DNA of 64,000 bases from Tranzscheliella williamsii (Eukaryota; Basidiomycota; Ustilaginomycetes; Ustilaginales; Ustilaginaceae): the NCBI GenBank assembly GCA_023212725.1, contig JALBYF010000025.1:62001-126000 (forward strand). Reading direction: 5' to 3'. The translations under genes were made by a program, and so were the position numbers. Under the pieces are notes generated by a model. That model was not told where the DNA came from and ran no database searches. It saw nothing but the letters and a program-made list of their open reading frames with translations. Below, one piece after another: positions 37,826 to 54,033 of the stretch. Position 1 is the first letter of the stretch. Each line of letters starts with the position of its first letter.

Positions 37826-40270
37826 CTAGAAAATCCGGAATGCCTTGCTGGGCTCCTGGAGATGCACATCGTGGGCCATGTCGAGATGATCGGTTGAAGA
37901 ACTACTGTAGAAATGGCCAGAGACGTCCAAAACGGACAAGTCTGAACTAGCGCAGCTCAAAGGTGAAGACTCTCCCTCCGCGGGATCCGCATTCCTTTCG
38001 GCTATGCCTGGCGCCGCCATGGCGAAATGCTGGCTTCTTTCGTTGCCAAAGATTCTTTGTGGATTCAAGTGACTAGGCAAAGGAGTAGTTGCAGCGCAGA
38101 TTTGCACTCCGTCGATATCAGGCAGACCGGCTGGCCCCGGCAGATCGTCCAGGTCCGACTCAGATTCGCTATAGTCCGCTGCGCCTCGGACCCAGACGTT
38201 TTTCTCCACCTCCTTGTAGGTCGGAATTCTCTTTTGGGCTGGTAAAGCTGATTTAGCATGAGCTTCGCCAGCCGTTCGATCTAAGCGTGGTCTCTTGAGT
38301 TTGACGATAAGCCTTCTCCTTATTGGTGCTTCAGAGGGACTTGAGCCTTGCTCCCTAGGCCCGGTCGGAACAAGAAGCGTTTTGTATTGCGTCTGAACCG
38401 GATTTTGACCATCTTTACCATTATTTGGCGAGCTGAGAGCAGTGGCAAGTGCGGAAGCTTGCTTTCGTGGCCTCCCGCGCTTCCTCTTCATCGTGCCATT
38501 CTGTTGATCTTGTCCACCTCTTTTGAAAGCATAGGTCGAATGCTCGTCTTCATCTTGTCCACCTTTTTTAGAGGAATAGGTCGAATGCTCGTCCTCGTCT
38601 AGTACTCGCCTAGGCTTCTGCTTCCTATAGCCAATAACGCGTTCAGAAGATCGCTGCACGTTGTTTGAATTGGGACGGCGCTCTGCACCACGATCACTGA
38701 GCTTTTCGTGACTCAGTGACATAGCGTCTAGGTATTCTCTGACACTGTGGTAGCGCATCTTACCGTCTTGGCGCTTGATCTTTTGAGAAAGCGAAACCAT
38801 CCGCTGTTTTCCCTCCTCCAACAGGTCACCCAGACCTGAACGCTTTAGACATATCGAGCAGTTGCAGTAATCTAGACACTTAGGACATTCGAAGTGTTTG
38901 TTGTCTTGCTCGTATGCAATCCCATATCGAATGGAGAGGCACCTTTGGCAATAGCTCAAGGGACATTGGACACCTTTTCTAAACCTTTGGCACCGCATCT
39001 TGGCGTGTGCGTTCTTGCGACGACACTGGTGGCAATTGATCCTGGCCGAGTCATTTACGACAGGGCAAGAGCGCGTAACGACCTCTTTTCTTCTTCTGGT
39101 CCTTTTACTGGGCGAGATCTCTTCAAGCGAGAATACTGAACCCGCTATATCCTCTCCCTCCGACTGAGTAAGCCGATCTTCATCACCGCTCCAGACCTGA
39201 CGGTCGTCTGGATTGACGGGCGGCATGTCCTTGATGAACAGATACTCGCTGCGCGCGCGTTCCCGTAGAAGCGGAAGGTCAGCATAAGCGAGGGTAAAAA
39301 CTTCGCCAACATTTGGCAAATCTTTTGTGGTTCCGTCATCTGCGAATCTTATGCGACGATCTTGGTTCTGTTTACGTCGAGACTCAAGAGCTAGTCTTTG
39401 CTCCCGAGAGGGCGAATCAACACGCTTGCGTTTAGGGCGACCGCGTGGCTTTTGTGGTAGGTCCGGAGTTGAAGCTGGCATCGTGGATGCCTCGACCGAA
39501 TCCATGGTAGGAGCCAGTGCACTGTCAGAGGGTTGGGCGGTAAGACCAAGCTGGGCCAAAAGGGCTTCGTTGGCTCGCAATTTCCTCTGGCGGCGTTCTT
39601 CGTAAGTCTCGCTATCGCCTTCATCTCCACTCGCGCGTTCCGACTCGAGCAAAACCTTAAGCTCATCATATAAGGAGGTCAGTTCCAAATCTTCGGGCTT
39701 AAACAGCGGAGGTTGATCAGCAAGCGGATCAGACAGTGGATTGACCGGGGCGGTTGCAACTGTCTCCTCTGAAGATGCTCTTCCGCCGCTTTGCCGATGT
39801 TCAACATCGTCGTGAACATCAAACAAGAGCTTTCTACGTCGTTTCTCTCCTTGGCTGCGAGCCTTAGTCTTCTCGTTGTCATGCGGGGACTCGGCTGCAG
39901 GGAGGAGTTCCAACGCGGCCAGATCGATCTTGTCACCCTCCTCAGCGAAAGGTGTGGCTGGAAGGTCCGGAGTGCGTATGCCATCTTCATCATCGAGCTG
40001 GTCAGGCTCGGGACTAGAGTCTACGAGATTGATCGTCGTTGAGACGATCGTCGAAGCGAAAGAAGAGCCGTTTAAGGCATCCCTCAACGTTGGGCGAGCG
40101 GTGGCACGATTAGAGTAGCTGGAAGGGACATGGGCGCTGACACTGACCGGGAGAGAATAGGTCCGGATCGAATCGGAAGGGTTCAACTTGGCATGGTTCT
40201 TTGACTGTCTATGTAAGGGCGCGGGCGTCGGATCGGTGCGTTTTCGATCTGAGAGCCGTGTCCGTGGCAT
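37826..40270 (-). CDS. zf-4CXXC_R1 (CDCA7-like) zinc-finger protein with AT-hooks
   Basis: Probable nuclear DNA-binding protein. 814 aa, one exon, ATG at 40270. A Cys-rich domain at about 408-480 reads INCHQCRRKNAHAKMRC, then CPLSYCQRCLSIRYG, then FECPKCLDYCNCSICLKR: the zf-4CXXC_R1 fold found in CDCA7, a HELLS/LSH chromatin-remodeler partner. The CHQC...RYG skeleton is kept, but the KT(x)TKT segment of vertebrate CDCA7 is not, so this is the more divergent fungal/plant class. Two AT-hook-like cores (PRGRPKRKR near 277; KRKRGRPRKQ near 594) would bind the minor groove. A 15-residue tandem duplication (DEDEHSTY...KGGQ / DEDEHSTY...RGGQ) lies near 556-585. The rest is acidic and Ser-rich. Role in remodeling or transcription is inferred from the family. 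Confidence 0.88.
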   Translation of the reverse strand: MPRTRLSDRKRTDPTPAPLHRQSKNHAKLNPSDSIRTYSLPVSVSAHVPSSYSNRATARPTLRDALNGSSFASTIVSTTINLVDSSPEPDQLDDEDGIRTPDLPATPFAEEGDKIDLAALELLPAAESPHDNEKTKARSQGEKRRRKLLFDVHDDVEHRQSGGRASSEETVATAPVNPLSDPLADQPPLFKPEDLELTSLYDELKVLLESERASGDEGDSETYEERRQRKLRANEALLAQLGLTAQPSDSALAPTMDSVEASTMPASTPDLPQKPRGRPKRKRVDSPSREQRLALESRRKQNQDRRIRFADDGTTKDLPNVGEVFTLAYADLPLLRERARSEYLFIKDMPPVNPDDRQVWSGDEDRLTQSEGEDIAGSVFSLEEISPSKRTRRRKEVVTRSCPVVNDSARINCHQCRRKNAHAKMRCQRFRKGVQCPLSYCQRCLSIRYGIAYEQDNKHFECPKCLDYCNCSICLKRSGLGDLLEEGKQRMVSLSQKIKRQDGKMRYHSVREYLDAMSLSHEKLSDRGAERRPNSNNVQRSSERVIGYRKQKPRRVLDEDEHSTYSSKKGGQDEDEHSTYAFKRGGQDQQNGTMKRKRGRPRKQASALATALSSPNNGKDGQNPVQTQYKTLLVPTGPREQGSSPSEAPIRRRLIVKLKRPRLDRTAGEAHAKSALPAQKRIPTYKEVEKNVWVRGAADYSESESDLDDLPGPAGLPDIDGVQICAATTPLPSHLNPQRIFGNERSQHFAMAAPGIAERNADPAEGESSPLSCASSDLSVLDVSGHFYSSSSTDHLDMAHDVHLQEPSKAFRIF

Positions 40271-40986: not shown

Positions 40987-42687
40987 TCAGAACATGGTCG
41001 CAAAGACATCAGAGGCATCCTTGACGCCGCTACCGGATGCATAAAGCGGTTGTCCGTTTGCCCCTACACCGTTTTTGCCAAACGTGAATCCGGCCCAGAG
41101 CCCCCGTCCGCCAGCGCCGGCACCAGTCCCTTGCACTGCTTCTACATTCTTCTGTTTCTCGTGCACATCCTTGTATCTCGCCATGTCGGCGGGGTCTTCG
41201 AAGTTGTCAAAGTAGCCGGTATCTGTCTCGCTCTCCAGTTCGGGGATGAAGGGTGCCTTGATCTCTCGCAACTTGTTCAAGTCCAGTGAGCGGAAGAAGG
41301 GGTGCGTCTGTATGGCGTCCAAGTTGCTGTAACGTCTGTCGGGCGCATCCACCAGCTTGGTGATCGCGTCCCAGGCAACATCCGACAGGTTAAACTGAAG
41401 GTTTTCCGGCGTGTCGTAGACCGGACGCTGGAGCACCTTCTGCCAGTTTTTGAGATTTGCAAATGTCTCGTCCGGGTTACTGCCGCTGAACGGAGGGAAG
41501 CCACACAAGAACTCATAAAGAATGCATCCCAGGCTCCAGTAGTCGACGCCAAAGCTATATTGTCTTCCTCTGAGCATCTCGGGAGCAATGTAGTCCGGCG
41601 AGCCAACGATTGAATTGGCGCGATGCTGGTTGTGCTGAATCATCTTCTTGTATAGCGAGCCTCGCTCTGCAGGTGTGCGGTAGACGAAATCGGTGTCTTT
41701 AACCGCATCCAGTTTGGCTTTCATCGACTCAATCTTGCCAGGATTCAGCGCACCGGAGGCAAGCCCAAAGTCTGTCAGCTTGACATGCCCAGACGAATCC
41801 ACAAGGAAGTTTTCGGGCTTGAGGTCTCGATGAATATAACCCAGTTTGTGCAGCTCGTTGACCGAGACGAGCATCTCTGCCATGTAGAAACGAGCATATT
41901 CTTCCTTGAGTGCACCATTGTTGCAGAGCAAGGTACGGAAATCACCTCCGGGAACGTACTCCATGGCGAGGAAAACATGGTCTGGATCCTGAAAGGCGTA
42001 GAGCAGCCTGACGAGCCAGGGCGTCTTTGTAGCTGTAAGAATGTCACGTTCTGTCAAGACGTGTCGGACCTCGTCCATCTTGACCAAGATGCGCTTCTTC
42101 AGCTTTTTCAGCGCGCAGATTTCGCCGGTATCCCGCTTACGGGCCAGGAAGACCTCGCCATATCCGCCGGCTCCAACCTGGGCGATGATATGGAACTGAT
42201 CGACGCGCAGTTTGGTGCGCCGTTTGCGCAACAAGACACGCTCTCTGCCATAGTACGAGGAGCGTTCCTTTAGAAATTCTGGACTTGGCTCCTCTTCATC
42301 CTGCTTGGGCAGCAGGCCGCGAGCTGAGGTGGACTCGTAGAATCGGTCGAGCCTAGCGCGTCTATCGGCCAGATACTTGAGATTGTCAAAGTAGTGGTTG
42401 AGAAAATAAAGCTGTGCTACGTTTGCTTTGCGCTGCACCTCGGTGCTCCTGGCGATCTCGTTCTCCCAGGGTTGCAGACCTTCTCCGCGACGCCAGCTTC
42501 TCCAACTTCCCTTAGGGTCGGGCTGGGCATCTGCAGGTGTCTGGTTCACACGGGATACATCGTGAGCCTTGAGTGGCTTGGCCATCTCCGAGATTGGCGG
42601 CAGCTGAGGGTAGCTGTTTTCCTTCTTGGAAGTGCTGAGTGGCGAAGGTGGCAATGGCGCCCCTACCGCAGAACGTGTTACGGCCAT
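40987..42687 (-). CDS. DBF2: NDR-family protein kinase of the mitotic exit/septation pathway
   Basis: Ser/Thr kinase of the LATS/NDR group (yeast Dbf2/Dbf20, fission yeast Sid2), activated by Mob1 and acting in mitotic exit and cytokinesis. 566 aa, one exon, ATG 42687. The N-terminal regulatory segment (about 60-160) carries the Mob-binding helices (QRKANVAQLYFLNHYFDNL). The kinase domain starts near 164: GAGGYGEVFLARK, ALKKLKK, HRDLKPENFLVD and DFGLASGALNPG, with the long NDR insert before the activation segment NSIVGSPDYIAPEML (phosphorylatable Ser). The C-terminal hydrophobic motif is GFTF with Thr at about 535. The GYFDNFEDPADMARYKD block is typical of Dbf2/Sid2 rather than of Cbk1/Orb6. 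Confidence 0.94.
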   Translation of the reverse strand: MAVTRSAVGAPLPPSPLSTSKKENSYPQLPPISEMAKPLKAHDVSRVNQTPADAQPDPKGSWRSWRRGEGLQPWENEIARSTEVQRKANVAQLYFLNHYFDNLKYLADRRARLDRFYESTSARGLLPKQDEEEPSPEFLKERSSYYGRERVLLRKRRTKLRVDQFHIIAQVGAGGYGEVFLARKRDTGEICALKKLKKRILVKMDEVRHVLTERDILTATKTPWLVRLLYAFQDPDHVFLAMEYVPGGDFRTLLCNNGALKEEYARFYMAEMLVSVNELHKLGYIHRDLKPENFLVDSSGHVKLTDFGLASGALNPGKIESMKAKLDAVKDTDFVYRTPAERGSLYKKMIQHNQHRANSIVGSPDYIAPEMLRGRQYSFGVDYWSLGCILYEFLCGFPPFSGSNPDETFANLKNWQKVLQRPVYDTPENLQFNLSDVAWDAITKLVDAPDRRYSNLDAIQTHPFFRSLDLNKLREIKAPFIPELESETDTGYFDNFEDPADMARYKDVHEKQKNVEAVQGTGAGAGGRGLWAGFTFGKNGVGANGQPLYASGSGVKDASDVFATMF

Positions 42688-43253: not shown

Positions 43254-43586
43254 GTTGGACCGGTGGACGAGGGGTCTCAACCACCGTGTGATTAGACTTT
43301 AAAGGCTCGCGTCGCGGTCACGTGTCTGGACATGAAATCAAAGTGGTTCGCGCAAGGATACCGTTGCATATTCAAGGGAACAACACTTTCCCCATCCGAA
43401 AGCCAGACGGGTAAGTTAGTAGAGCTTAGCAAGTGGAAATGGGCAATGACAAGGCGCTTGTTCACACCGCATGGCTGCTTGCTTGACTGATTGATGTTGC
43501 GTGACAACGTTGCCTCTTCAATACCATCACGCGCTATCCACGCTTACTGTCCTCGATAGTGCAATCCCTACGTGCACCACGCAGTC
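43254..43586. promoter_or_regulatory. Divergent promoter upstream of SPC25
   Basis: 333 bp; no specific site recognised. Confidence 0.35.
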
Positions 43587-44669
43587 ATGAGTACAGCCGC
43601 TACCCCGCGCGCTTCCGCGGCGGCGACTCCACGACGACCGCCCGCGGCGAGCTCTTATTCCAGCGCCGAGATGCGCAAGGTATATGCGGATTTGGACAGC
43701 AACGCCATCTTCGATTTCTCCGCGATTGTCGGCACTGTCAGGTCTTTTCAATCGCGCTTCAGAGCATACACCGAGAATGCCATATCCAACATCAACGACG
43801 ACAAGGCCGAGTTTGATGCGAATCGGATGGAGCACAGAAACCAGCTCAGTACGCTAGACAGGGAGATCGAAGATGCCAAGGCCACTCAGCGAGAGCTCTG
43901 GGATAGTAAGTTTACATCTGAGGGGTGTTCAGAAGCGCTGCGCAAAGACTATCATGCTGATCTTTTCCACCACTTGCGCTGTACAGCTATTGCTCAAGAG
44001 CGAGACCAGGACACGAGTCTTCGAGCTCGACAACAAACCCTTCAGTCCCAGAAAGCCTCGGTTGCTCAACGCTGCACTGAGCTCCAGGCTGAGATCGCCG
44101 AGCTCAAGCAGAAGCTTGAATCCAAAAAAGTGTCAAAGGAAGCCCAAAGGGAGAAGCTCAAGGAACAGATGGACAGGAATGGCCCCGAACTCAGACTTTT
44201 GGAATCAAAGACTGGATGCTCCATCACACCTACCAAAATCGGTGAGTGCTGGATGCAGCTGTATGAGAGTAGGCCAATATTGTATGCTGATCGTAAAGGT
44301 GGTTTTCTGCTACTGCCTCCTTTTAGGTGATCAACTCAAGTTCACTTTCAATCTGATGAATCCCGACGACTGGTCGCAAGAGTGCCATTTTACTATAGAC
44401 GTGAGCTCGAGCAAATACAAAAGTAAGATGATCTCCTCCGCATTGCAGTCTTCGCAAGTTCCTTACTGATTCCTATCTACTCGCAATTGACTGCAGTCAT
44501 CTCCCTAACACCAACGTTGCCAAGTTCGGTAATAGATCAGCTGCTGGAGGAGTTGAATGCCTCGCGAAAGTTCTATACGTTCGTCAAGAAGATGCGATCG
44601 GCGCTGCGGGCGCAAGTCGAGAAGCAACGACTTGAGGCTCGGGACACTGCCAGGAGAGGAGGTCACTAG
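43587..44669 (+). CDS. SPC25: Kinetochore protein SPC25 (NDC80 complex)
   Basis: Subunit of the outer-kinetochore Ndc80 complex, pairing with Spc24 to dock on the MIND complex and CENP-T. Four exons: 43587-43905, 43987-44241, 44327-44422 and 44497-44669; joined frame 843 nt, 280 aa. Introns have donors GTAAGT, GTGAGT and GTAAGA with CAG/TAG acceptors. Residues 1-25 are Ala/Thr/Pro-rich; about 60-190 is a long coiled coil (AELKQKLESKKVSKEAQREK). The C-terminal globular RWD domain begins LLESKTGCSITPTKI, continues GDQLKFTFNLMNPDDW and ECHFTIDVSSSKYK, and ends ISLTPTLP...LLEELNASRKFYTFVKKMR. This is the Spc25 pattern. Length and architecture fit fungal orthologues. Confidence 0.92.
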
Positions 44670-45112: not shown

Positions 45113-47485
45113 ATGGCGCCCCCTCGAATGTCGATCAAATTTCTCGGCACCTCTTCCATGCCAAACTCGTCTCGAAACTACTCTTCTCTCCTGTTCAAGG
45201 CTGACAATCATACCGTTATGGTAGATTGTGGAGAGTCCACGCAGCGCCAGCTACTATCGCGCTATGTTGGTTCTGACGAGCGTCTATCCAATATAAAGAC
45301 TATCCTAATCACCCACCTGCACGCAGATCATGTGCTTGGATTGGTGCCACTCCTAATGACCATGATGGGCCCGTCCGGTCTTACGACTGGCGATTCGCAC
45401 GAGCCGAGGGTAGAAATATTTGGACCTCGCGGACTCAGAGCCTTGGTGCGGACTACCCTGACGTTATGCTATTCCCAGCTCGGTGGCAAGTACGTCGTCC
45501 ACGAATTTGCTTGGCCATCATCCGACCGTACCCCCGAAGGGCAACCCCACGCCCTCCATGACCTTCCCACCAGATCGATACCCAATCTCCCCCTGTATGA
45601 AGGAGAAGCGGATTCTGGCAGAGAAATCCGAATAGACGAAAGGTCTTTCAGCTGGCCTCGATTTCACACTTTTCAGCCGACGCCTCAGAGCCCCAAGATT
45701 CACATCAGTGCTGCGCCTATCTCCCACAGATGCCCAACACTGGGCTACGTTTTTGAAGAGGAACCCTCATCCTCGCCGATAAGCTCCAGTGTCAATGACA
45801 TCCTCAACGAAAATGGGCCGGCGCTACGAGAGCAGGGCATTCGGCATCCTCTCTCGCTGCTCTCTCGTTTGGTAGGCAAACGGGAAACACTTGAGATGCC
45901 TGACGGTAGGGTGTTAAACCCACCTGCACTCGACACACCAGGAAGGAAAGTAACCATCATGGGAGACACTAGCGATGGCACCGGCGGATTTTCGCCCGCT
46001 CAGCTGCAAAAAGGGTACGGCTTGCCTACGCTAGCGGTCGATTCCGACGTTCTGGTGCATGAAAGCACGAACATCGCATTGCCAGGACACCTCAACAAGA
46101 ATGGGAAGGCAGACATTTTTGAACATGTTGCTGCGAAAGCTGCCAGCAGGGGTCATTCCGTTCCCCAGGTAGCGGGGCGATTCGCGGCTCTTGTAAAAGC
46201 CCGGAGGCTTGTTCTCAACCATTTTTCGACCAAGTATCCCAGCCCACCACATTACTTACTCGATAACTCCGGAGTAAATGGAGAGGAGACGAAACAGCCA
46301 CATGGCCAGAGGCCCGCGACGAACAAGCAATTAGGAGGGCCCGAGCGGAAAGCATTGATAATGAAGGAATTTGAGACCCAAGCACACGAAGCCTGGAAGG
46401 AAGTCTCAGGCCTATATGAAAACCTTGAGATCTACGCTGCCTACGACGGATTCTCGCTCGAGGTGCCCATTCACAGCATCAAAGGCCCGAATATGGTTAC
46501 GAAGCCTAGACACAACATGTTTGAAAGACCATGGGAAAGCCCGGCTCCGGGTCATACACCCACACCGAATGCTGGTGATCTTAAGCGGAAGTATGCAGAC
46601 AGGGCCGAAGATACTTCGTCGGGAGAAGAATGGAATCCGTCACTTTACCTGTTGCCAGGCGCGCCGGCAACAACTCCGCCACACGCCCTGATCCTGCTCA
46701 ACTCGCCCATCGATGCTCAACAGAAGCAACACTTCCTGCGGCTTTGGAAGTCGGCAGCCGTGCGGCTCTGCGCAGACGGCGCGGCCAATAGACTGATTGA
46801 TGCGTTCGGATTCGATGCCTTCGTCGGGCCCCAGCAAGCATCATCAGTCCCACTCCCCCATGCTGTCGTCGGAGACCTTGATTCGATACGTCCAGAAACA
46901 CAGACATTTTTTGCAAATCAGGGGGTTGACATACATGTGAGGCCTTCACAATATGCAACGGATCTTCAGAAGTGCATTCAAGAGGTCGAGGATCAAGAGC
47001 AAGATCAAGGCAAAGCGGAGCATACACTGATGATCTATGGCGGACTGTCCGGGCGGCTGGATCAGAGCGTACATACGCTCCATGTTCTTTGGCAACTGGC
47101 TCCCGGCGTGGAAGGTTTGGGACTAGTGGAGGATCCCGAGGGTAGCAATGAGAGAGGCGGAAGGCTACGGAAGCGGCGCCGCACGTTTGCTATTGGCGAC
47201 AGTAGTGTGGCTTGGCTCCTCCCCAAGGGGAAGCATCGGCTAAGGATGGCGCGCGAGGTGATGGGCAAAACGTGCGGCATCCTGCCACTAGGCGTCGGCA
47301 TCAGTGGCGCCAAAGTATCGACGACGGGCCTAGAATGGAATCTCGACGGCGAAGCAACGACTCTGGGAGGCTTCTTGTCGACGTCCAACCATCTCAAGGA
47401 CGAGCTGGGTCGAGTGAAACTAGAAACGGATCGACCCATCTACTGGACAGTGGAACTTCGTCCAGACAGCGACTGTGCCTTTTGA
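45113..47485 (+). CDS. Fusion protein: RNase Z (tRNA 3' endonuclease) + thiamine pyrophosphokinase
   Basis: One uninterrupted frame of 790 aa, ATG at 45113. The N-terminal half (1 to about 480) is a metallo-beta-lactamase RNase Z of the short ELAC1 type, which trims tRNA 3' trailers: FLGTSSMPNSSRNYSSLL, metal motif THLHADHVLGL (His68, His70, Asp72, His73), ISHRCPTLGY, TIMGDTSDG (Asp near 284), HESTN and LNHFSTKY. After a short linker, residues about 509-790 are thiamine pyrophosphokinase (THI80/TPK1): CADGAANRLID, VVGDLDSI, IYGGLSGRLDQ, STTGLEWNL and GGFLSTSN, which makes thiamine pyrophosphate from thiamine and ATP. Both halves keep their catalytic motifs and are near normal length. No stop, intron signal or internal promoter is evident between them. 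Confidence 0.93.
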   Translation: MAPPRMSIKFLGTSSMPNSSRNYSSLLFKADNHTVMVDCGESTQRQLLSRYVGSDERLSNIKTILITHLHADHVLGLVPLLMTMMGPSGLTTGDSHEPRVEIFGPRGLRALVRTTLTLCYSQLGGKYVVHEFAWPSSDRTPEGQPHALHDLPTRSIPNLPLYEGEADSGREIRIDERSFSWPRFHTFQPTPQSPKIHISAAPISHRCPTLGYVFEEEPSSSPISSSVNDILNENGPALREQGIRHPLSLLSRLVGKRETLEMPDGRVLNPPALDTPGRKVTIMGDTSDGTGGFSPAQLQKGYGLPTLAVDSDVLVHESTNIALPGHLNKNGKADIFEHVAAKAASRGHSVPQVAGRFAALVKARRLVLNHFSTKYPSPPHYLLDNSGVNGEETKQPHGQRPATNKQLGGPERKALIMKEFETQAHEAWKEVSGLYENLEIYAAYDGFSLEVPIHSIKGPNMVTKPRHNMFERPWESPAPGHTPTPNAGDLKRKYADRAEDTSSGEEWNPSLYLLPGAPATTPPHALILLNSPIDAQQKQHFLRLWKSAAVRLCADGAANRLIDAFGFDAFVGPQQASSVPLPHAVVGDLDSIRPETQTFFANQGVDIHVRPSQYATDLQKCIQEVEDQEQDQGKAEHTLMIYGGLSGRLDQSVHTLHVLWQLAPGVEGLGLVEDPEGSNERGGRLRKRRRTFAIGDSSVAWLLPKGKHRLRMAREVMGKTCGILPLGVGISGAKVSTTGLEWNLDGEATTLGGFLSTSNHLKDELGRVKLETDRPIYWTVELRPDSDCAF

Positions 47486-48248: not shown

Positions 48249-49432
48249 ATGGCCTCACGAAGACGTGCTGCCAAGAAGGGTGTCTCCTTCTGCCTCATGG
48301 TTGTTGGTGCTTCGGGTACGGGCAAAACCACCTTCGTCAACACGCTCTGTGATTCCGAGGTGATCGGCCACAAGATCAGTGATAACCCGGAGACAGCTCA
48401 CATCGAAGAAGGCATCCGAATCAAGCCCGTCCACGTTGAATTGGAGGAAGATGGCATGCGCATCGGCCTGACCATCGTCGACACCCCCGGCTTTGGTGAC
48501 AACATCGACAACGAGTATGCGTAAGTATTCCGTCTGCTGCCTTCCAGCGCAAACGAAGCGCGCCGCTGTCACCAGCCGGTCGGAGCTGACTGGGTTTGTT
48601 CCGCTTTCCCACCCGCCTGTCTAGCTTCTCCGAGATCGTTGGCTTCCTGGAACGACAGTATGACGACATCCTGGCCGAGGAGTCACGTATCAAGCGAAAC
48701 CCCCGTTTCCGAGACAACCGAGTACACGCTTTGCTGTACTTCATCACCCCTACTGGACACTCTCTTCGCGAGATGGACATTGAGCTGATGCGAAGGCTCT
48801 CGCCCCGAGTCAATGTCATTCCCGTCATCGGTAAGGCCGACTCCATGACGCTGACTGAGAAGCACGACTTCAAGAAGCGCATCATGCAGGACATCGAACA
48901 CTACGGCATTCCAGTCTACAACTTCCCGTACGATGTCGAGGAGGACGACGAAGAGACGATCACTGACAACTCTGAACTCCGAACGCTGATGCCTTTCGCT
49001 ATCGTAGGCTCGGAAGAGGAGATTGTCATGAATGGCGAGCCGGTTCGAGCCAGGAGATACCCTTGGGGAGTGGTCGAGGTCGACAACCCGAAGCATTCGG
49101 ATTTTGCTAGACTCCGCTCTGCCCTGCTCAACACCCACCTCACCGACCTCAAGGAGATCACTCACGACTTCCTCTACGAGAACTACCGAACTGAGAAGCT
49201 GTCTAGAACTGTTCACAGCGACTATGCCGATACCTCTATTCCTGGCGAAGAACTGGCGAACCAGTCCGTCAGGTTGAAGGAAGAGCAGCTGAAGAGGGAA
49301 GAGGACAAGCTCAAGGAGATCGAACTGCGCGTGCAAAGGGAGATCCAGGAGAAGCGACAAGAGCTTTTGGCGAAGGAGGAATCTCTCCGCAACCTCGAGA
49401 GTCGACTTCAGGCGCAGAATGTCAACGAATAA
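48249..49432 (+). CDS. CDC3: Septin, CDC3/AspB-like
   Basis: Filament-forming GTPase of the septin ring at bud necks, septa and hyphal tips. Two exons: 48249-48520 and 48625-49432; intron GTAAGT...GTCTAG; 359 aa. G1 P-loop GASGTGKT at about 21-28, G3 DTPGFGDN near 78-85 and G4 GKADS near 200. The septin-unique element lies around YPWGVVEVDNPKHSDFARLR. A C-terminal coiled coil (EEQLKREEDKLKEIELRVQR) ends the protein. The run LERQYDDILAEESRIKRN and the G1 sequence are closest to CDC3/AspB septins as I know them, but this copy lacks the long N-terminal extension of yeast Cdc3. Subgroup assignment is moderate. Confidence 0.9.
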
Positions 49433-49674: not shown

Positions 49675-50411
49675 TCAGTCTAGGCCTCTAGACTGTCTCC
49701 ACGAGTGGATCCACTGGATGATGCGGTCGACATTCTCCTCTACGTCGCCTGACTCTTGACTTGTCAGTTCGACGACGGCCTCTGCTGGGTAGCTCGATCT
49801 GGCGTCATCAGCGACGACTCCCATGATCTCTGCTTCGTTGTTTTCTTGGATTTTCTTGGTCGGGTACCCTCTGTGAGGGTCGTAGCGGCCAGAGGGGCGG
49901 ATGCGGTCAGTGAAAGTGCCGGAGCGACTGTAGGTCCGACGGCGGATCGGATCGGCGCGGCGACTTACCTCTTTTCTAACCGTTGCCAGAGAACGGCATG
50001 GTCGCAGCGCAGTACGACGACGAGGTCGACCCATCTCTCCGGCCAGACGTCGCAGGTATGCCAGTCGAGGATGAGGCCTCCTCGGGTGTCGTCGTCTTCG
50101 GAGAGTGCTCTGGCCTGTTGCGTCTCGGCCTCGTCGTGGTCTTCCGAGTCCAGCGGCTCGGGCGCATTGGTTCCCGTCAGCGGTTCCAGATGGTCGAGCA
50201 GCTGGTCCTCGTTGACCTCGTACGACTGCCATTCCTCCAGATAGTTGTTGTAGAACCCCTCCTTCTTGACCAACTGGCCGACATCGATCTGCCGCAGCGG
50301 ATGGCTGGACGATCCGGACGCACTGTACGTCGATGCGAGCAAGCTCGAGTGCGTCGACTTGCCCGTGCCCGGCGTCCCTGTGATCACGACGTTCGGAAAG
50401 CTGCGCACCAT
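49675..50411 (-). CDS. FAP7: FAP7/hCINAP-type adenylate kinase, 40S ribosome maturation factor
   Basis: Atypical nuclear adenylate kinase/ATPase that acts with Rps14 in final 20S to 18S rRNA processing. Two exons: 50411-49969 and 49870-49675; intron GTAAGT...CTCACAG; 212 aa. Walker A GTPGTGKS at 12-19, then GQLVKKEGFYNNYLEEWQS (the NMP-binding part), LILDWHTCDVWPERWVDLV, and after the splice RGYPTKKIQENNEAEIM, the family's LID-region signature. It ends with a helix VDRIIQWIHSWR. Compared with yeast and human proteins there is an extra acidic segment of about 30 residues (roughly 80-112, EPLDSEDHDEAE...ALSEDDDT) before the LILDWH motif. The 3' end faces that of the septin gene. Confidence 0.93.
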
Positions 50412-50778: not shown

Positions 50779-51956
50779 TCAGAGGCGAGCGCCCTGACCG
50801 ACAAGAAGTTGGTTTCCATTGCGCAGCACCTTGGCCGCCTCATCAACCATCTCGTCAACAATTTCCTTGGCTGGCTTGATGTCGTCAATGACAGAAGCAC
50901 ACTTGCCGAGCAAGAACCTCTGTCGCGCGGCTTTTTCTTTGGTACCCTGCTCATCGTCATTCTCGACATCGTGGTAGGCGGGGATGATGCCTTGATCGGT
51001 CAGCTTCTTGATGTCGTGGGGTCTGGACTCCCACTCCATGATGTAGGGGGTCTTGTAGACACGCAGAGGGCGGCCCGTGAAGATGATGGTCCGGATGTCG
51101 GTCTCGTGGGTAGACTTGAGCAGAGCCTCCTTGTGCGCCCTGGGCGCACCGGACTCCTTGGAAGCGACGAAGCGGGTGCCGACCCAGACGCCGTCGGCAC
51201 CCCAGCAGAGAGCAGCGGCAAGACCTCGTCCGTTGAAGATGCCGCCAGCAGCGACAGTGATGATAGGCTTGCCCGTCAAGGGCGATTTGTGACCGCGGCA
51301 GATGTCGACGACCCGAGGAGCGATAATGGACAGCGGAACATCGCCCGTATGTCCACCCCCCTCGCCTCCTTGGAAGATAATCATGTCGACACCGGCCTGG
51401 AGAACCTTGGGAGCATGCTTGGGATGTCCAATGATGCCAGCAACAACGATGCCGGCCTTGTGCAGTTTCTCGACAACTTGCTGCGGCGGCACACCGACAG
51501 CGGAGACGAAGAGCTTGGCTCCAGACTCAATAATGATGTCAATCAGTTCAGGCAGCTGCCCGTTAGTGTAGTCGGTGTTGGTCTTACGGGCTCCCTCTCC
51601 AACCTTGGGCAGAAGAAGATCGACGCCGAACGGGCCGTCCTTCTTGTTGAGATATCCCTTGAGCTCGTCGATCTGTTGTCGCAGAAACTTGGGAGTGTAT
51701 CCGACGCCGCCGATAACGCCGATGCCGCCCGCATTGGTGACAGCAGCGGCCAGCTCCGGACCGGCAGCGACATTCCTGCAAATCAAAGAGGAGGCCCACG
51801 TCGATAATCAAACAGTATCAGTATTTCGTCAAAGGAGAACATGGACCGTGGCGGCTACACAGCGCCGCGAGATACCTACATGCCAGCAAGCATGATCGGG
51901 TGCGTGAGCCCGAACTGCTCAGTGAGCGGTGTCTTGATCCGCTGTGGCGAGGTCAT
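50779..51956 (-). CDS. Nitronate monooxygenase (2-nitropropane dioxygenase family)
   Basis: FMN-dependent TIM-barrel enzyme that oxidises toxic alkyl nitronates to carbonyls and nitrite. Two exons: 51956-51880 (MTSPQRIKTPLTEQFGLTH, PIMLAGM) and 51775-50779; the intron splits the Met codon (GGCAT|GTAGGT ... TTTGCAG|G), 357 aa. Family motifs: AGPELAAAVTNAGGIGVIGG, FGVDLLLP, FQGGEGGGHTGDVP (with the conserved His that can act as base) and AAGGIFNGRGLAAALCWGADGVWVGTRF (phosphate-binding end of the barrel), cited here in shorter pieces as AAGGIFNGRG and GVWVGTRF. Length fits the fungal class. No nearby nitroalkane-related partner except possibly the nitrilase 3 kb away; no operon logic applies. 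Confidence 0.93.
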
Positions 51957-52408: not shown

Positions 52409-52774
52409 ATGTCGGCGCATGATTCGACCGCAGCGCAAGACGCAGCGGCATCCCTCATAGCAGACAAGTTTGTTGGACGCACCGCCATCGTGCACATACA
52501 GGATGGTAGGAGATTTCGCGGGTCGTTCCTCTGCATTGACTCAGGGGCCAACCTTATTCTTGCCAATACCGACGAACTACGGTCCATACCCAGTGGAAAG
52601 GTGACCAGCCGAAATGTAGGGATGGTGATGGTGCCTGGAGAACGTATCACAAAGGTGGAAGTGCAGGAAGACGCTCAGATCGCCAACGGTTCGGAAACGT
52701 TGCAACCTAGTACGCAGCTCTCCGACTCCGCTGCCCATGCCGGTTGGCCTGAGGACGAGTCGTTGTACACTTGA
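52409..52774 (+). CDS. NAA38: LSM-domain protein, NatC N-acetyltransferase auxiliary subunit
   Basis: Probable Naa38/Mak31 (LSMD1) subunit of NatC, which acetylates N-terminal Met followed by hydrophobic residues. 121 aa, one exon, ATG 52409. Sm fold: helix ASLIADKFVG, Sm1 strands RTAIVHIQDGRRFRGSFLCID with SGANLILANTDEL, and Sm2 RNVGMVMVPGERITKVEV. The GERI in Sm2 and the lack of a second RNA-binding Asn/Arg pair suit the LSMD1 group rather than spliceosomal Lsm proteins. The last 100 bp of its coding sequence (52675-52774) are also coding on the other strand for the next gene, in a tail-to-tail overlap. Confidence 0.85.
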   Translation: MSAHDSTAAQDAAASLIADKFVGRTAIVHIQDGRRFRGSFLCIDSGANLILANTDELRSIPSGKVTSRNVGMVMVPGERITKVEVQEDAQIANGSETLQPSTQLSDSAAHAGWPEDESLYT

Positions 52775-54033
52775 ACTGCAGCCATGATGCATCCGGTCTG
52801 CCAACCCTCCTCTTTCTTCCAGCAAATCTCGAGCATCCACATCAGTACCTCGTCCAGGCGAAGTAGCCATGAGTCGTCCTGCGATGCCGTCTTTCGACTG
52901 AGTGTGGTCCCGAGCATTTGTGCTAGCGAGCCTCGTAGGACGTTTTCGCAAAATGCCGTCCCTTCAAGGTGATCCTCGATGAACACCATCTGAAGACCTG
53001 TTTCGAACAGTCGAGCTAAAAGATCAAGCTGTAGCTTTTTCCCCTGGATGTCGCCACCCAAGCCGGCGAGCTCGTCAGCAAGCTTGTGGACAATGGAGGA
53101 TGTCAAGATTCTCCCCACTCCTACCGCCAGAGAACTACCACGCTGAGTCAAGCGTACTAGGCTGTACTCAAGTAGCCTGCATTCCCTCAGCGAGCAGAGG
53201 TGGAATATCATCGGGCTCAGGGTTTCTCTCTGGAAAGCGTCCAAGCATTGCTCCGTTAAGCCGGCATGGTTGAGCTCGGCACAAGAATCCCAGACAAGCC
53301 CGAGCAGCGCCCAAACAATGCTGTCGATGTGCCCGTCTGCGGTCAAGAAAGCTTGCCCCAGACAGCCAAGTATGTGCTCGACATGGTTTCCGACGCCGGC
53401 AACAATGGCTTCTGGGCTTCCAGACTGATAGTAGTCCAGAAGGAGTTCGAGAAGGACCCCACTTCGTCGGCAAGGGCCTGGCAAGCCGTTGGGACCGCGC
53501 CAGATGTCGCAGTCTCTCTGCCCAATTTCCTCGTCTGACGCTACCGCCAGCCATTGTCGTACCGATTCTATGCAGTGTAACTGCTGGCACTCGCTACGGT
53601 CCTCCAGCCCTGGCATCTCAACTAGGCCCCTATTGTCAGCTGAGCCCGAAGCGACACGCTTTAGACGCATTTAACTTACCCTGCGTTTGCTCTGCTGCCG
53701 CCGCGAAAAAGCAATTGTAGATAGATGCTTCGAATCGATCCTCAGCCGACGGATAGTGCAACAGAGATTGCAAAAACTGTTTCACATTGACTACGAACAG
53801 ACGCCTCTCATGCTGGCTGGACGGGTTGGGCAGGCCCAACTGGCCGACGGCGAACTAGACTCCCAGTTGCGGTACCGTCATTGTCAGTGCGTAGCCGTTG
53901 TACAGAGAAGCCCGATTCGTCAGCTTACCACAGCCGCCTTGAGGATACCGTCCGCATTCATATTGCCAAGCACGTCCAGAGCGGTGGGGGATTGTTTGCA
54001 CGTCGATTCGAGCAAGGCGAAACCAAGCAGCAT
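52675..54033 (-). CDS. Uncharacterised helical protein, three exons
   Basis: Not recognised. Exons 54033-53929, 53854-53680 and 53621-52675 join in frame to 1227 nt, 408 aa. Both introns are GT-AG with clear CTGAC branch-like strings (CACTGACAATG; GCTGACAAT); intron 2 is 58 nt. The joins read ILKAAV|FAVGQLGLPN and AEQTQ|VEMPGLED. The protein is almost all helix-forming, with Leu/Cys-spaced segments (RRSGVLLELLLDYYQSG, SIVWALLGLVWDSCAEL, VHKLADELAGLGGDI), suggesting an armadillo/HEAT-like solenoid. It ends CVLGCNVSEPLAI inside the NAA38 gene on the opposite strand. A start further upstream cannot be excluded, as the frame is open above the ATG. Function unknown. Confidence 0.75.

What the first reader, a model, noticed from the sequence alone, without database searches (positions are those of the whole stretch)
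45113..47485. Single ORF fusing tRNase Z to thiamine pyrophosphokinase
One frame without stop or splice signal encodes a complete short-form RNase Z (HLHADH site, later Asp and His ligands) followed by a complete thiamine pyrophosphokinase (ADGAANR, GDLDS, GGLSGRLDQ, STSN). These are normally separate genes. A fusion would put tRNA 3'-end maturation and cofactor synthesis under one promoter and in one compartment. It suggests either shared localisation (ELAC1-type enzymes are cytosolic, as is Thi80) or coupling of thiamine status to tRNA processing. I do not know of this fusion being described; that is a statement of my knowledge, not a search result.
Basis: partly seen in the sequence, partly recalled or inferred. 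Interest (0 to 1): 0.8.

Follow-up and report, generated by a model that had tools for sequence, protein, structure and literature searches.

The report
Smut-class tRNase Z–thiamine pyrophosphokinase fusion
In this smut-class fungus the one detectable enzyme that makes the active form of vitamin B1 is encoded as a single protein with a tRNA-trimming enzyme; the fusion is real and shared by its relatives, but nothing yet shows that the two activities influence each other.

Summary
Window 45113-47485 (+) is one uninterrupted 790-codon frame: an ELAC1-type short tRNase Z (about residues 1-452), a poorly conserved 54-residue tether and a complete Thi80/TPK1-type thiamine pyrophosphokinase (507-790). 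It is no accident of sequencing: 20 of 120 listed database relatives span the same junction. Nine named sources are all class Ustilaginomycetes, in three orders; the tenth is a plant record, probably contaminated. The other 100 listed carry no TPK label. In sister classes (Tilletia, Exobasidium, Malassezia and others) the enzymes are separate genes. The fused RNase Z halves form one clade (SH-aLRT 97); the TPK halves group only weakly (51). One fusion in the ancestor of the class fits best. In the window's own genome this ORF is the only TPK detected, while an ELAC2-type long tRNase Z lies elsewhere, so the fused half is probably a secondary enzyme rather than the main pre-tRNA processor. In Testicularia the last in-frame Met before the kinase is 440 residues upstream, which argues against an internal AUG. 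Best reading: a tethered bifunctional protein with two independent activities. Coupling of thiamine status to tRNA processing is unsupported. Sporisorium reilianum's protein already bears both names in NCBI; seven paper searches listed no description.

The parts
45113..47485 (+). Fused gene: tRNase ZS - tether - thiamine pyrophosphokinase, 790 aa, one open frame
45113..46468 (+). N-terminal ELAC1-type short tRNase Z, residues 1-452; HLHADH at 68-73, H205, D285, HEST 316-319, H348, NHFST 369-373
46469..46630 (+). Tether, residues 453-506: 54 aa here, 40-63 aa in the 16 aligned fused proteins, low conservation, rich in disorder-promoting residues
46631..47482 (+). C-terminal thiamine pyrophosphokinase, residues 507-790; its W-N-P-S start resembles the W(D/N)-containing start of stand-alone basidiomycete TPKs; CADGAAN 553, GDLDS 587, SQYATDLQK 612, GGLSGRLDQ 643, STSN 756
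46361..46363 (+). In-frame internal ATG (Met417), present in 15 of 16 aligned fused proteins but not in Testicularia; the only widely shared candidate internal start

Best explanation
One gene makes one bifunctional, probably cytosolic protein. Its N-terminal half is the fungus's ELAC1-type short tRNase Z, a backup or tRNA-repair enzyme beside the ELAC2-type long form encoded elsewhere. Its C-terminal half is the cell's only detected thiamine pyrophosphokinase (thiamine + ATP to TPP + AMP). A flexible tether of about 50 residues lets each half fold and form its own homodimer. The two genes were joined once in the ancestor of the Ustilaginomycetes, and the activities most likely work independently. 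Because TPK is needed for TPP, the fusion keeps the otherwise losable tRNase ZS in the genome. Shown here: the frame, the domains, the key residues, the clade distribution, a single TPK match, the separate long tRNase Z. Inferred: activity of both halves, localisation, quaternary structure, independence, retention effect.
For: Single frame with both domains and their key residues. Same junction in 20 of 120 listed proteins, P0001-P0020 (same set). The nine named fungal sources fall in three orders of Ustilaginomycetes. Fused tRNase ZS halves form one clade, SH-aLRT 97. Both halves diverge at the same pace: mean pairwise identity 0.752 and 0.751 over 78 pairs of 13 proteins, Spearman 0.886. One TPK_catalytic and one TPK_B1_binding match in the 18.18-Mb genome. 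Separate long tRNase Z with Lactamase_B_4 and ELAC2 match 2.8e-64. In Testicularia no Met lies between residue 84 and the kinase core. Both enzyme families are homodimers: RNase ZS (PMC9181182, passages), Candida and yeast TPK (PMC2515308, passages). TPK is essential in S. cerevisiae and S. pombe (same passages).
Against: No RNA or protein evidence was available. TPK halves group together only weakly (SH-aLRT 51; 84 for 13 of 14 rows without Violaceomyces, whose gene model lacks the C-terminus). The RNase Z half stays below NCBIfam's RNase_Z cut-off (130.8 against 292.95 bits). Its P-x-K-x-R-N loop lacks the Lys (human ELAC1 lacks it too). Two smut-class entries carry TPK without the RNase Z start: P0121 (Melanopsichium, 373 aa, starting at Met417) and unnamed P0128 (250 aa, N-terminus apparently out of frame); they look like cut models but were not checked on DNA. 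Genome completeness is not given, so a second TPK could be missed.
Confidence: 0.72

Rival explanations
1. The gene also (or mainly) makes a separate TPK, by an internal promoter or start at Met417, by splicing or by cleavage in the tether, so that the fusion is only partly a protein-level fact.
For: Met417 is kept in 15 of 16 aligned fused proteins; the Melanopsichium model P0121 (373 aa) starts at that Met; the tether is variable and disorder-prone, hence easily cut.
Against: The same Met is found in 5 of 10 aligned stand-alone tRNase Zs, so its retention needs no role as a start; Testicularia has none and its previous Met is residue 84; no Met of the tether is shared.
Confidence: 0.15
2. 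The halves are functionally coupled: thiamine or TPP status, or TPK dimerisation, tunes tRNA processing or repair, or tRNA binding tunes TPP synthesis.
For: The fusion has persisted through three orders with both sets of catalytic residues kept wherever sequence is present, apart from short or disturbed gene models.
Against: No shared metabolite (established pathway knowledge); no TPP riboswitch in the window and one sub-threshold candidate on another contig (where 49 of 707 first-look candidates were scored); the tether shows no class-wide motif; persistence is also expected if TPK is essential and fission is rare.
Confidence: 0.08
3. The RNase Z half has lost tRNase activity and serves as a dimerisation or solubility domain of TPK, or acts on a different phosphodiester.
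For: Fungal tRNase ZS flexible arms are atypical and the 2010 survey considered pseudo-genes as one option (PMC2942849, passages); the NCBIfam RNase_Z cut-off is not met.
Against: All zinc ligands and HEAT/HST-loop residues checked are unchanged wherever sequence is present in 16 fused and 10 stand-alone proteins, except S372 in one stand-alone protein; the half diverges as slowly as the TPK half. The survey's authors favoured a back-up or different role.
Confidence: 0.1
4. Artefact: an assembly or frame error, or a merged gene model, joins two genes.
For: Gene models can merge neighbours, as perhaps in the mannosidase-RNase Z entry of Tilletia horrida, P0032 (unchecked).
Against: The window is raw DNA with no intron needed; 20 database proteins from many sources span the junction.
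Confidence: 0.01

Closest known systems
Sporisorium reilianum 'related to Ribonuclease Z / related to thiamin pyrophosphokinase 1' (P0002) and its class-mates
   Same: Same domain order, 66% identity over the whole length
   Different: Nothing of substance; it is the orthologue, already labelled in a public record
Human ELAC1 (PDB 3zwf), short tRNase Z
   Same: Aligned over residues 6-376 at E 1.2e-28, with matching histidine motif and HEAT/HST stretches
   Different: The solved chain is 368 aa without a TPK; the flexible-arm region differs
Thi80 / TPK1 thiamine pyrophosphokinase (PDB 1ig0, 1ig3, 2g9z)
   Same: Catalytic and B1-binding domains; four Mg-binding Asp and the conserved Asn described in PMC2515308 matched by motif
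   Different: Those chains are 247-368 aa at most and stand alone; here the N-terminus carries a tRNase ZS
Schizosaccharomyces pombe Tnr3 (Nudix-TPK fusion; identity and domain order recalled)
   Same: A TPK fused to another catalytic domain; PMC4921024 lists 'Tnr3/Nudix' as a fusion to a thiamin gene (Table 4, passage)
   Different: The partner there acts in the same pathway (pyrophosphatase); here it belongs to RNA metabolism
ELAC2-type long tRNase Z
   Same: Same superfamily; present in this genome at C69 (L022)
   Different: 1115-aa frame with Lactamase_B_4 and Lactamase_B_2, ELAC2 match 2.8e-64, no TPK

Membership tests
tRNase Z, short form (ELAC1 type) | HxHxDH motif and the further His/Asp zinc ligands | tested here: met
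   H68, H70, D72, H73 in 15 of 16 aligned fused rows (P0016's model lacks the N-terminus); H205, D285, H370 in 16 of 16
tRNase Z, short form (ELAC1 type) | HEAT and HST loops | tested here: met
   HEST at 316-319, NHFST at 369-373; H316, E317, T319, H370, S372 in 16 of 16 aligned fused rows
tRNase Z, short form (ELAC1 type) | PxKxRN loop | tested here: inconclusive
   P-N-S-S-R-N here: Lys absent; the aligned stretch of human ELAC1 (P-S-P-T-R-G) lacks it too
[quoted passage not shown]
   By eye an insert lies between H205 and D285 without a clear Walker A-like stretch; the survey reports the lack of both motifs for Malassezia
tRNase Z, short form (ELAC1 type) | NCBIfam TIGR02651 curated score | tested here: not met
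   130.8 bits against 292.95; a cut-off for naming bacterial and archaeal proteins, not a definition of eukaryotic tRNase ZS
tRNase Z, short form (ELAC1 type) | Endonucleolytic tRNA 3' processing activity | not testable with these tools
   needs purified protein
Thiamine pyrophosphokinase (Thi80/TPK1) | Catalytic and B1-binding domains above curated cut-offs | tested here: met
   Pfam 96.3 against 30.7 and 52.3 against 22 bits; TIGR01378 101.6 against 76.4
Thiamine pyrophosphokinase (Thi80/TPK1) | Four Mg-binding Asp and the STSN Asn | tested here: met
   D555, D588, D590 in 16 of 16; D617 in 15 of 16 and N759 in 14 of 16 aligned fused rows, the rest gaps in short models P0017 and P0019; correspondence to PMC2515308 numbering by motif only
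Thiamine pyrophosphokinase (Thi80/TPK1) | Enzyme activity and homodimer | not testable with these tools

The most novel reading that the evidence does not exclude
The fusion is selected, not frozen: the TPK dimer acts as a TPP-responsive hub that positions and gates an ELAC1-type tRNA-repair enzyme, so that in smut-class fungi vitamin B1 status and repair of tRNAs from stalled ribosomes are physically coupled.
Probability: 0.06. Interest if true: 0.8.

Novelty: new variant of a known kind. Interest (0 to 1): 0.4.

Why it matters
It ties a dispensable-looking RNA enzyme to an essential cofactor enzyme across a class of fungi, a clean natural case to ask whether long-lived fusions of unrelated enzymes are functional or merely frozen. 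It also marks the Ustilaginomycetes against their sister classes, and it probably explains a visible annotation error: several Malassezia stand-alone TPKs are named 'ribonuclease Z'.

Tried and rejected
Assembly or gene-model artefact: rejected, 20 database proteins span the junction.

Hidden intron at the junction: only a chance-level donor at 46591, no frame-keeping combination among 7 (crude patterns).

TPP riboswitch control: no Rfam match in the window; in the genome one match at E <= 1, below the gathering score (C57:89977-90048, 30.6 against 54.3 bits; 49 of 707 candidates scored), with no ORF over 167 aa in the 3 kb around it. Not pursued.

Thiamine auxotrophy as a reason for the fusion: THI4-like matches (best 7.7e-68) and NMT1-like matches (best 1.1e-17, one stretch read across a TGA) are present exon by exon, so the fungus probably makes thiamine.

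Structure prediction and fold search: not possible. Selection tests on the tether: no DNA of relatives was obtained, so dN/dS was not measured.

Neighbours look ordinary: septin (48596-49432), protein kinase (40987-42687), AAA_18 NTPase (49965-50411), nitronate monooxygenase (50779-51786), zf-4CXXC_R1 protein (37826-40270). The upstream ORF 43572-44330 matched no Pfam family and nothing convincing in the PDB (best E 0.14); ORF 52675-53670 matched no Pfam family.

Papers: the nearest precedent is Tnr3/Nudix. The ELAC1 repair paper (Yip et al. 2020) is not held; I saw it only as a citation.

Full report
What is there. The frame 45113-47485 (+) is open for 790 codons. Pfam finds a metallo-beta-lactamase domain at the N-terminus and both TPK domains at the C-terminus. 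Against solved structures the N-terminal half is closest to human ELAC1 and the C-terminal half to mouse and human TPK1. The TPK part is over the curated cut-offs of Pfam and of NCBIfam's thiamine diphosphokinase model; the RNase Z part is below NCBIfam's RNase_Z cut-offs but carries the zinc ligands and the HEAT and HST loops. The TPK looks complete: the stretch W507-N-P-S resembles the N-terminal W-containing stretch of stand-alone TPKs of Malassezia, Tilletia and Sporobolomyces.

Is it real and shared? One search scored the 7991 candidates sharing most words and listed 120 of 127 hits. The first 20 (P0001-P0020) all reach across the junction: 17 carry Pfam labels of both kinds, and three (P0015, P0016, P0018) lack part of the N-terminus but keep the later RNase Z part (all 20 sequences read). 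None of the other 100 listed has a TPK label. A profile search with eight fused proteins (7993 candidates scored, 120 of 168 hits listed) again showed TPK labels only in these. The named sources are Sporisorium reilianum, Pseudozyma hubeiensis, Testicularia cyperi, Sporisorium graminicola, Ustilago nuda, Pseudozyma flocculosa, Thecaphora frezii, Ustilago loliicola and Violaceomyces palustris, all class Ustilaginomycetes, in the orders Ustilaginales, Urocystidales and Violaceomycetales; P0020 is filed under the plant Cichorium endivia and is presumably a smut contaminant. The other ten of the 20 have no name.

Sister lineages. Stand-alone RNase Zs of Tilletia, Meira, Tilletiaria, Exobasidium, Parajaminaea, Sympodiomycopsis, Microstroma and Malassezia were listed, and stand-alone TPKs of Tilletia, Jaminaea, Sympodiomycopsis, Parajaminaea, Acaromyces, Exobasidium, Tilletiaria and Malassezia (120 of 280 hits listed). 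Look-ups put Tilletia, Exobasidium, Tilletiaria and Sympodiomycopsis in Exobasidiomycetes and Malassezia in Malasseziomycetes; the rest is recalled. Eight of these organisms have both proteins listed. In five, each protein lies on a single listed contig and the contig lengths differ (Tilletia maclaganii, Tilletiaria anomala, Sympodiomycopsis kandeliae, Parajaminaea phylloscopi, Malassezia sp. CBS 17886). Tilletia controversa and T. horrida also list different lengths, but over several contigs. In Exobasidium rhododendri both lie on a contig of the same length, with locus tags about 500 apart. So where it can be seen, the two genes are not neighbours outside the class.

Trees. With 15 fused and 25 stand-alone RNase Zs (my pick from the listed hits), the fused form one clade (SH-aLRT 97), beside Tilletia and Tilletiaria (support 88) (quick method, no bootstrap; Ascobolus and Puccinia are long branches and Ascobolus falls outside the chosen outgroup). 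With 14 fused and 25 stand-alone TPKs the fused are one side of a branch with support 51 only; 13 of them without Violaceomyces reach 84. Of the 20 fused hits, 15 went into alignment A1 (P0012, P0013, P0015, P0018 and P0020 left out as truncated or disturbed); P0006 was further left out of both trees and P0017, whose model ends early, out of the TPK tree. In the RNase Z tree the window's nearest row by path is Testicularia (0.55). One fusion in the stem of the class is the simplest history.

Is it one protein? Tether lengths are 40-63 aa in the 16 aligned fused proteins, with 5-26% identity to the window. Disorder-promoting residues make up 80-92% of the tethers, against 70% and 68% in the window's two domains. 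The frame is kept across this divergent stretch. No Met of the tether is shared. Met417 is shared by 15 of 16, but it also occurs in 5 of 10 aligned stand-alone RNase Zs, and Testicularia lacks it: its last Met before the kinase is residue 84, 440 residues before the first kinase strand. At least there, TPK needs the fused reading, short of a non-AUG start or splicing. Against this stand two smut-type entries without the RNase Z start: Melanopsichium P0121 (373 aa), which begins at the Met417 equivalent, and unnamed P0128 (250 aa), whose N-terminus looks out of frame (Melanopsichium is Ustilaginomycetes). They are either cut models or a hint of a separate product. No RNA or protein data were available.

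What else does the genome hold? G000 (18.18 Mb, 135 contigs, completeness not given) has one TPK_catalytic and one TPK_B1_binding match, both in this ORF. The search is exon by exon and scores only the best candidates. Of 10 RNase_Z matches at E <= 1, two fall on this ORF, four on C69:147697-150693 and four weak ones (23 bits or less) on C77, C84, C112 and C1; the Lactamase_B_2 search shows that several other genes of the superfamily exist (13 matches). The C69 frame has Lactamase_B_4 and an ELAC2 match of 2.8e-64; its N-terminus looks like a mitochondrial presequence by eye. THI4-like and NMT1-like matches are present. Thus a long tRNase Z can cover nuclear and mitochondrial pre-tRNA work, and the fused enzyme is the extra short form. 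The 2010 fungal survey found a long form in all fungi examined and short forms in all sequenced Basidiomycota, with a back-up or different role favoured (PMC2942849, passages); a review assigns maturation to the long and recycling to the short form (PMC9181182, passages).

How it most likely works. Both halves belong to families that act as homodimers (passages). A flexible tether lets both dimerise in one assembly. There is no shared metabolite, and no riboswitch in the window, so I take the activities as independent; the consequence of the fusion is equal expression and the retention of tRNase ZS through an essential partner (inference). TPK is essential in S. cerevisiae and S. pombe (PMC2515308, passages).

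Is it known? NCBI already names the S. reilianum protein for both halves. Paper searches combining tRNase Z or ribonuclease Z with thiamin(e) pyrophosphokinase gave 0 papers, as did two with Ustilago and Ustilaginomycotina. Looser ones listed 2, 3 and 15 papers, none of which by title or abstract opening concerns the fusion. Only open-licence papers are held. A compilation of fusions in metabolic pathways lists Tnr3/Nudix for thiamin and has no word beginning with 'RNase' in its main text (PMC4921024, passages; its tables of thiamin fusions are in supplements I could not read). Verdict: a real, class-wide domain architecture, already labelled in databases but, as far as searched, not described; moderately interesting.

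Noticed in passing
P0122, P0123, P0124, P0125, P0178: Five Malassezia stand-alone TPKs are named 'ribonuclease Z' in NCBI although only TPK domains are labelled in them; the name was probably carried over from the smut fusion.
   Followed up: partly
P0066, P0248, P0249, P0250, P0253: ELAC1-like short tRNase Z relatives are listed for Ascomycota (Ascobolus, Choiromyces, Tuber; phylum checked for Ascobolus only), whereas the 2010 survey (PMC2942849) reported none in that phylum.
   Followed up: no
P0021, P0026, P0027, P0041: Four of ten aligned stand-alone short tRNase Zs end in Arg/Gly-rich (RGG-like) tails, in the place where the fused proteins carry tether and TPK; three are from the sister class or thought to be, P0041 is unnamed.
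   Followed up: partly
P0037, P0043: Two Malassezia RNase Zs carry an N-terminal PF02970 domain (tubulin cofactor A, name recalled); another fusion or a merged gene model. In P0043 the RNase Z start is missing, which favours a merged model.
   Followed up: no
P0087, P0032, P0046: Short tRNase Z joined to a protein kinase (Mycena indigotica), a mannosidase (Tilletia horrida) and PF13862 (Ceratobasidium): perhaps merged gene models, unchecked.
   Followed up: no
P0020: A Cichorium endivia (plant) record encodes a smut-like copy of the fusion whose frame looks disturbed; probably fungal contamination of the plant assembly.
   Followed up: no
L021 (G000:C57:89977-90048): Sub-threshold TPP-riboswitch-like match (30.6 bits, E 0.0032), the only one listed for the genome at E <= 1.
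   Followed up: partly
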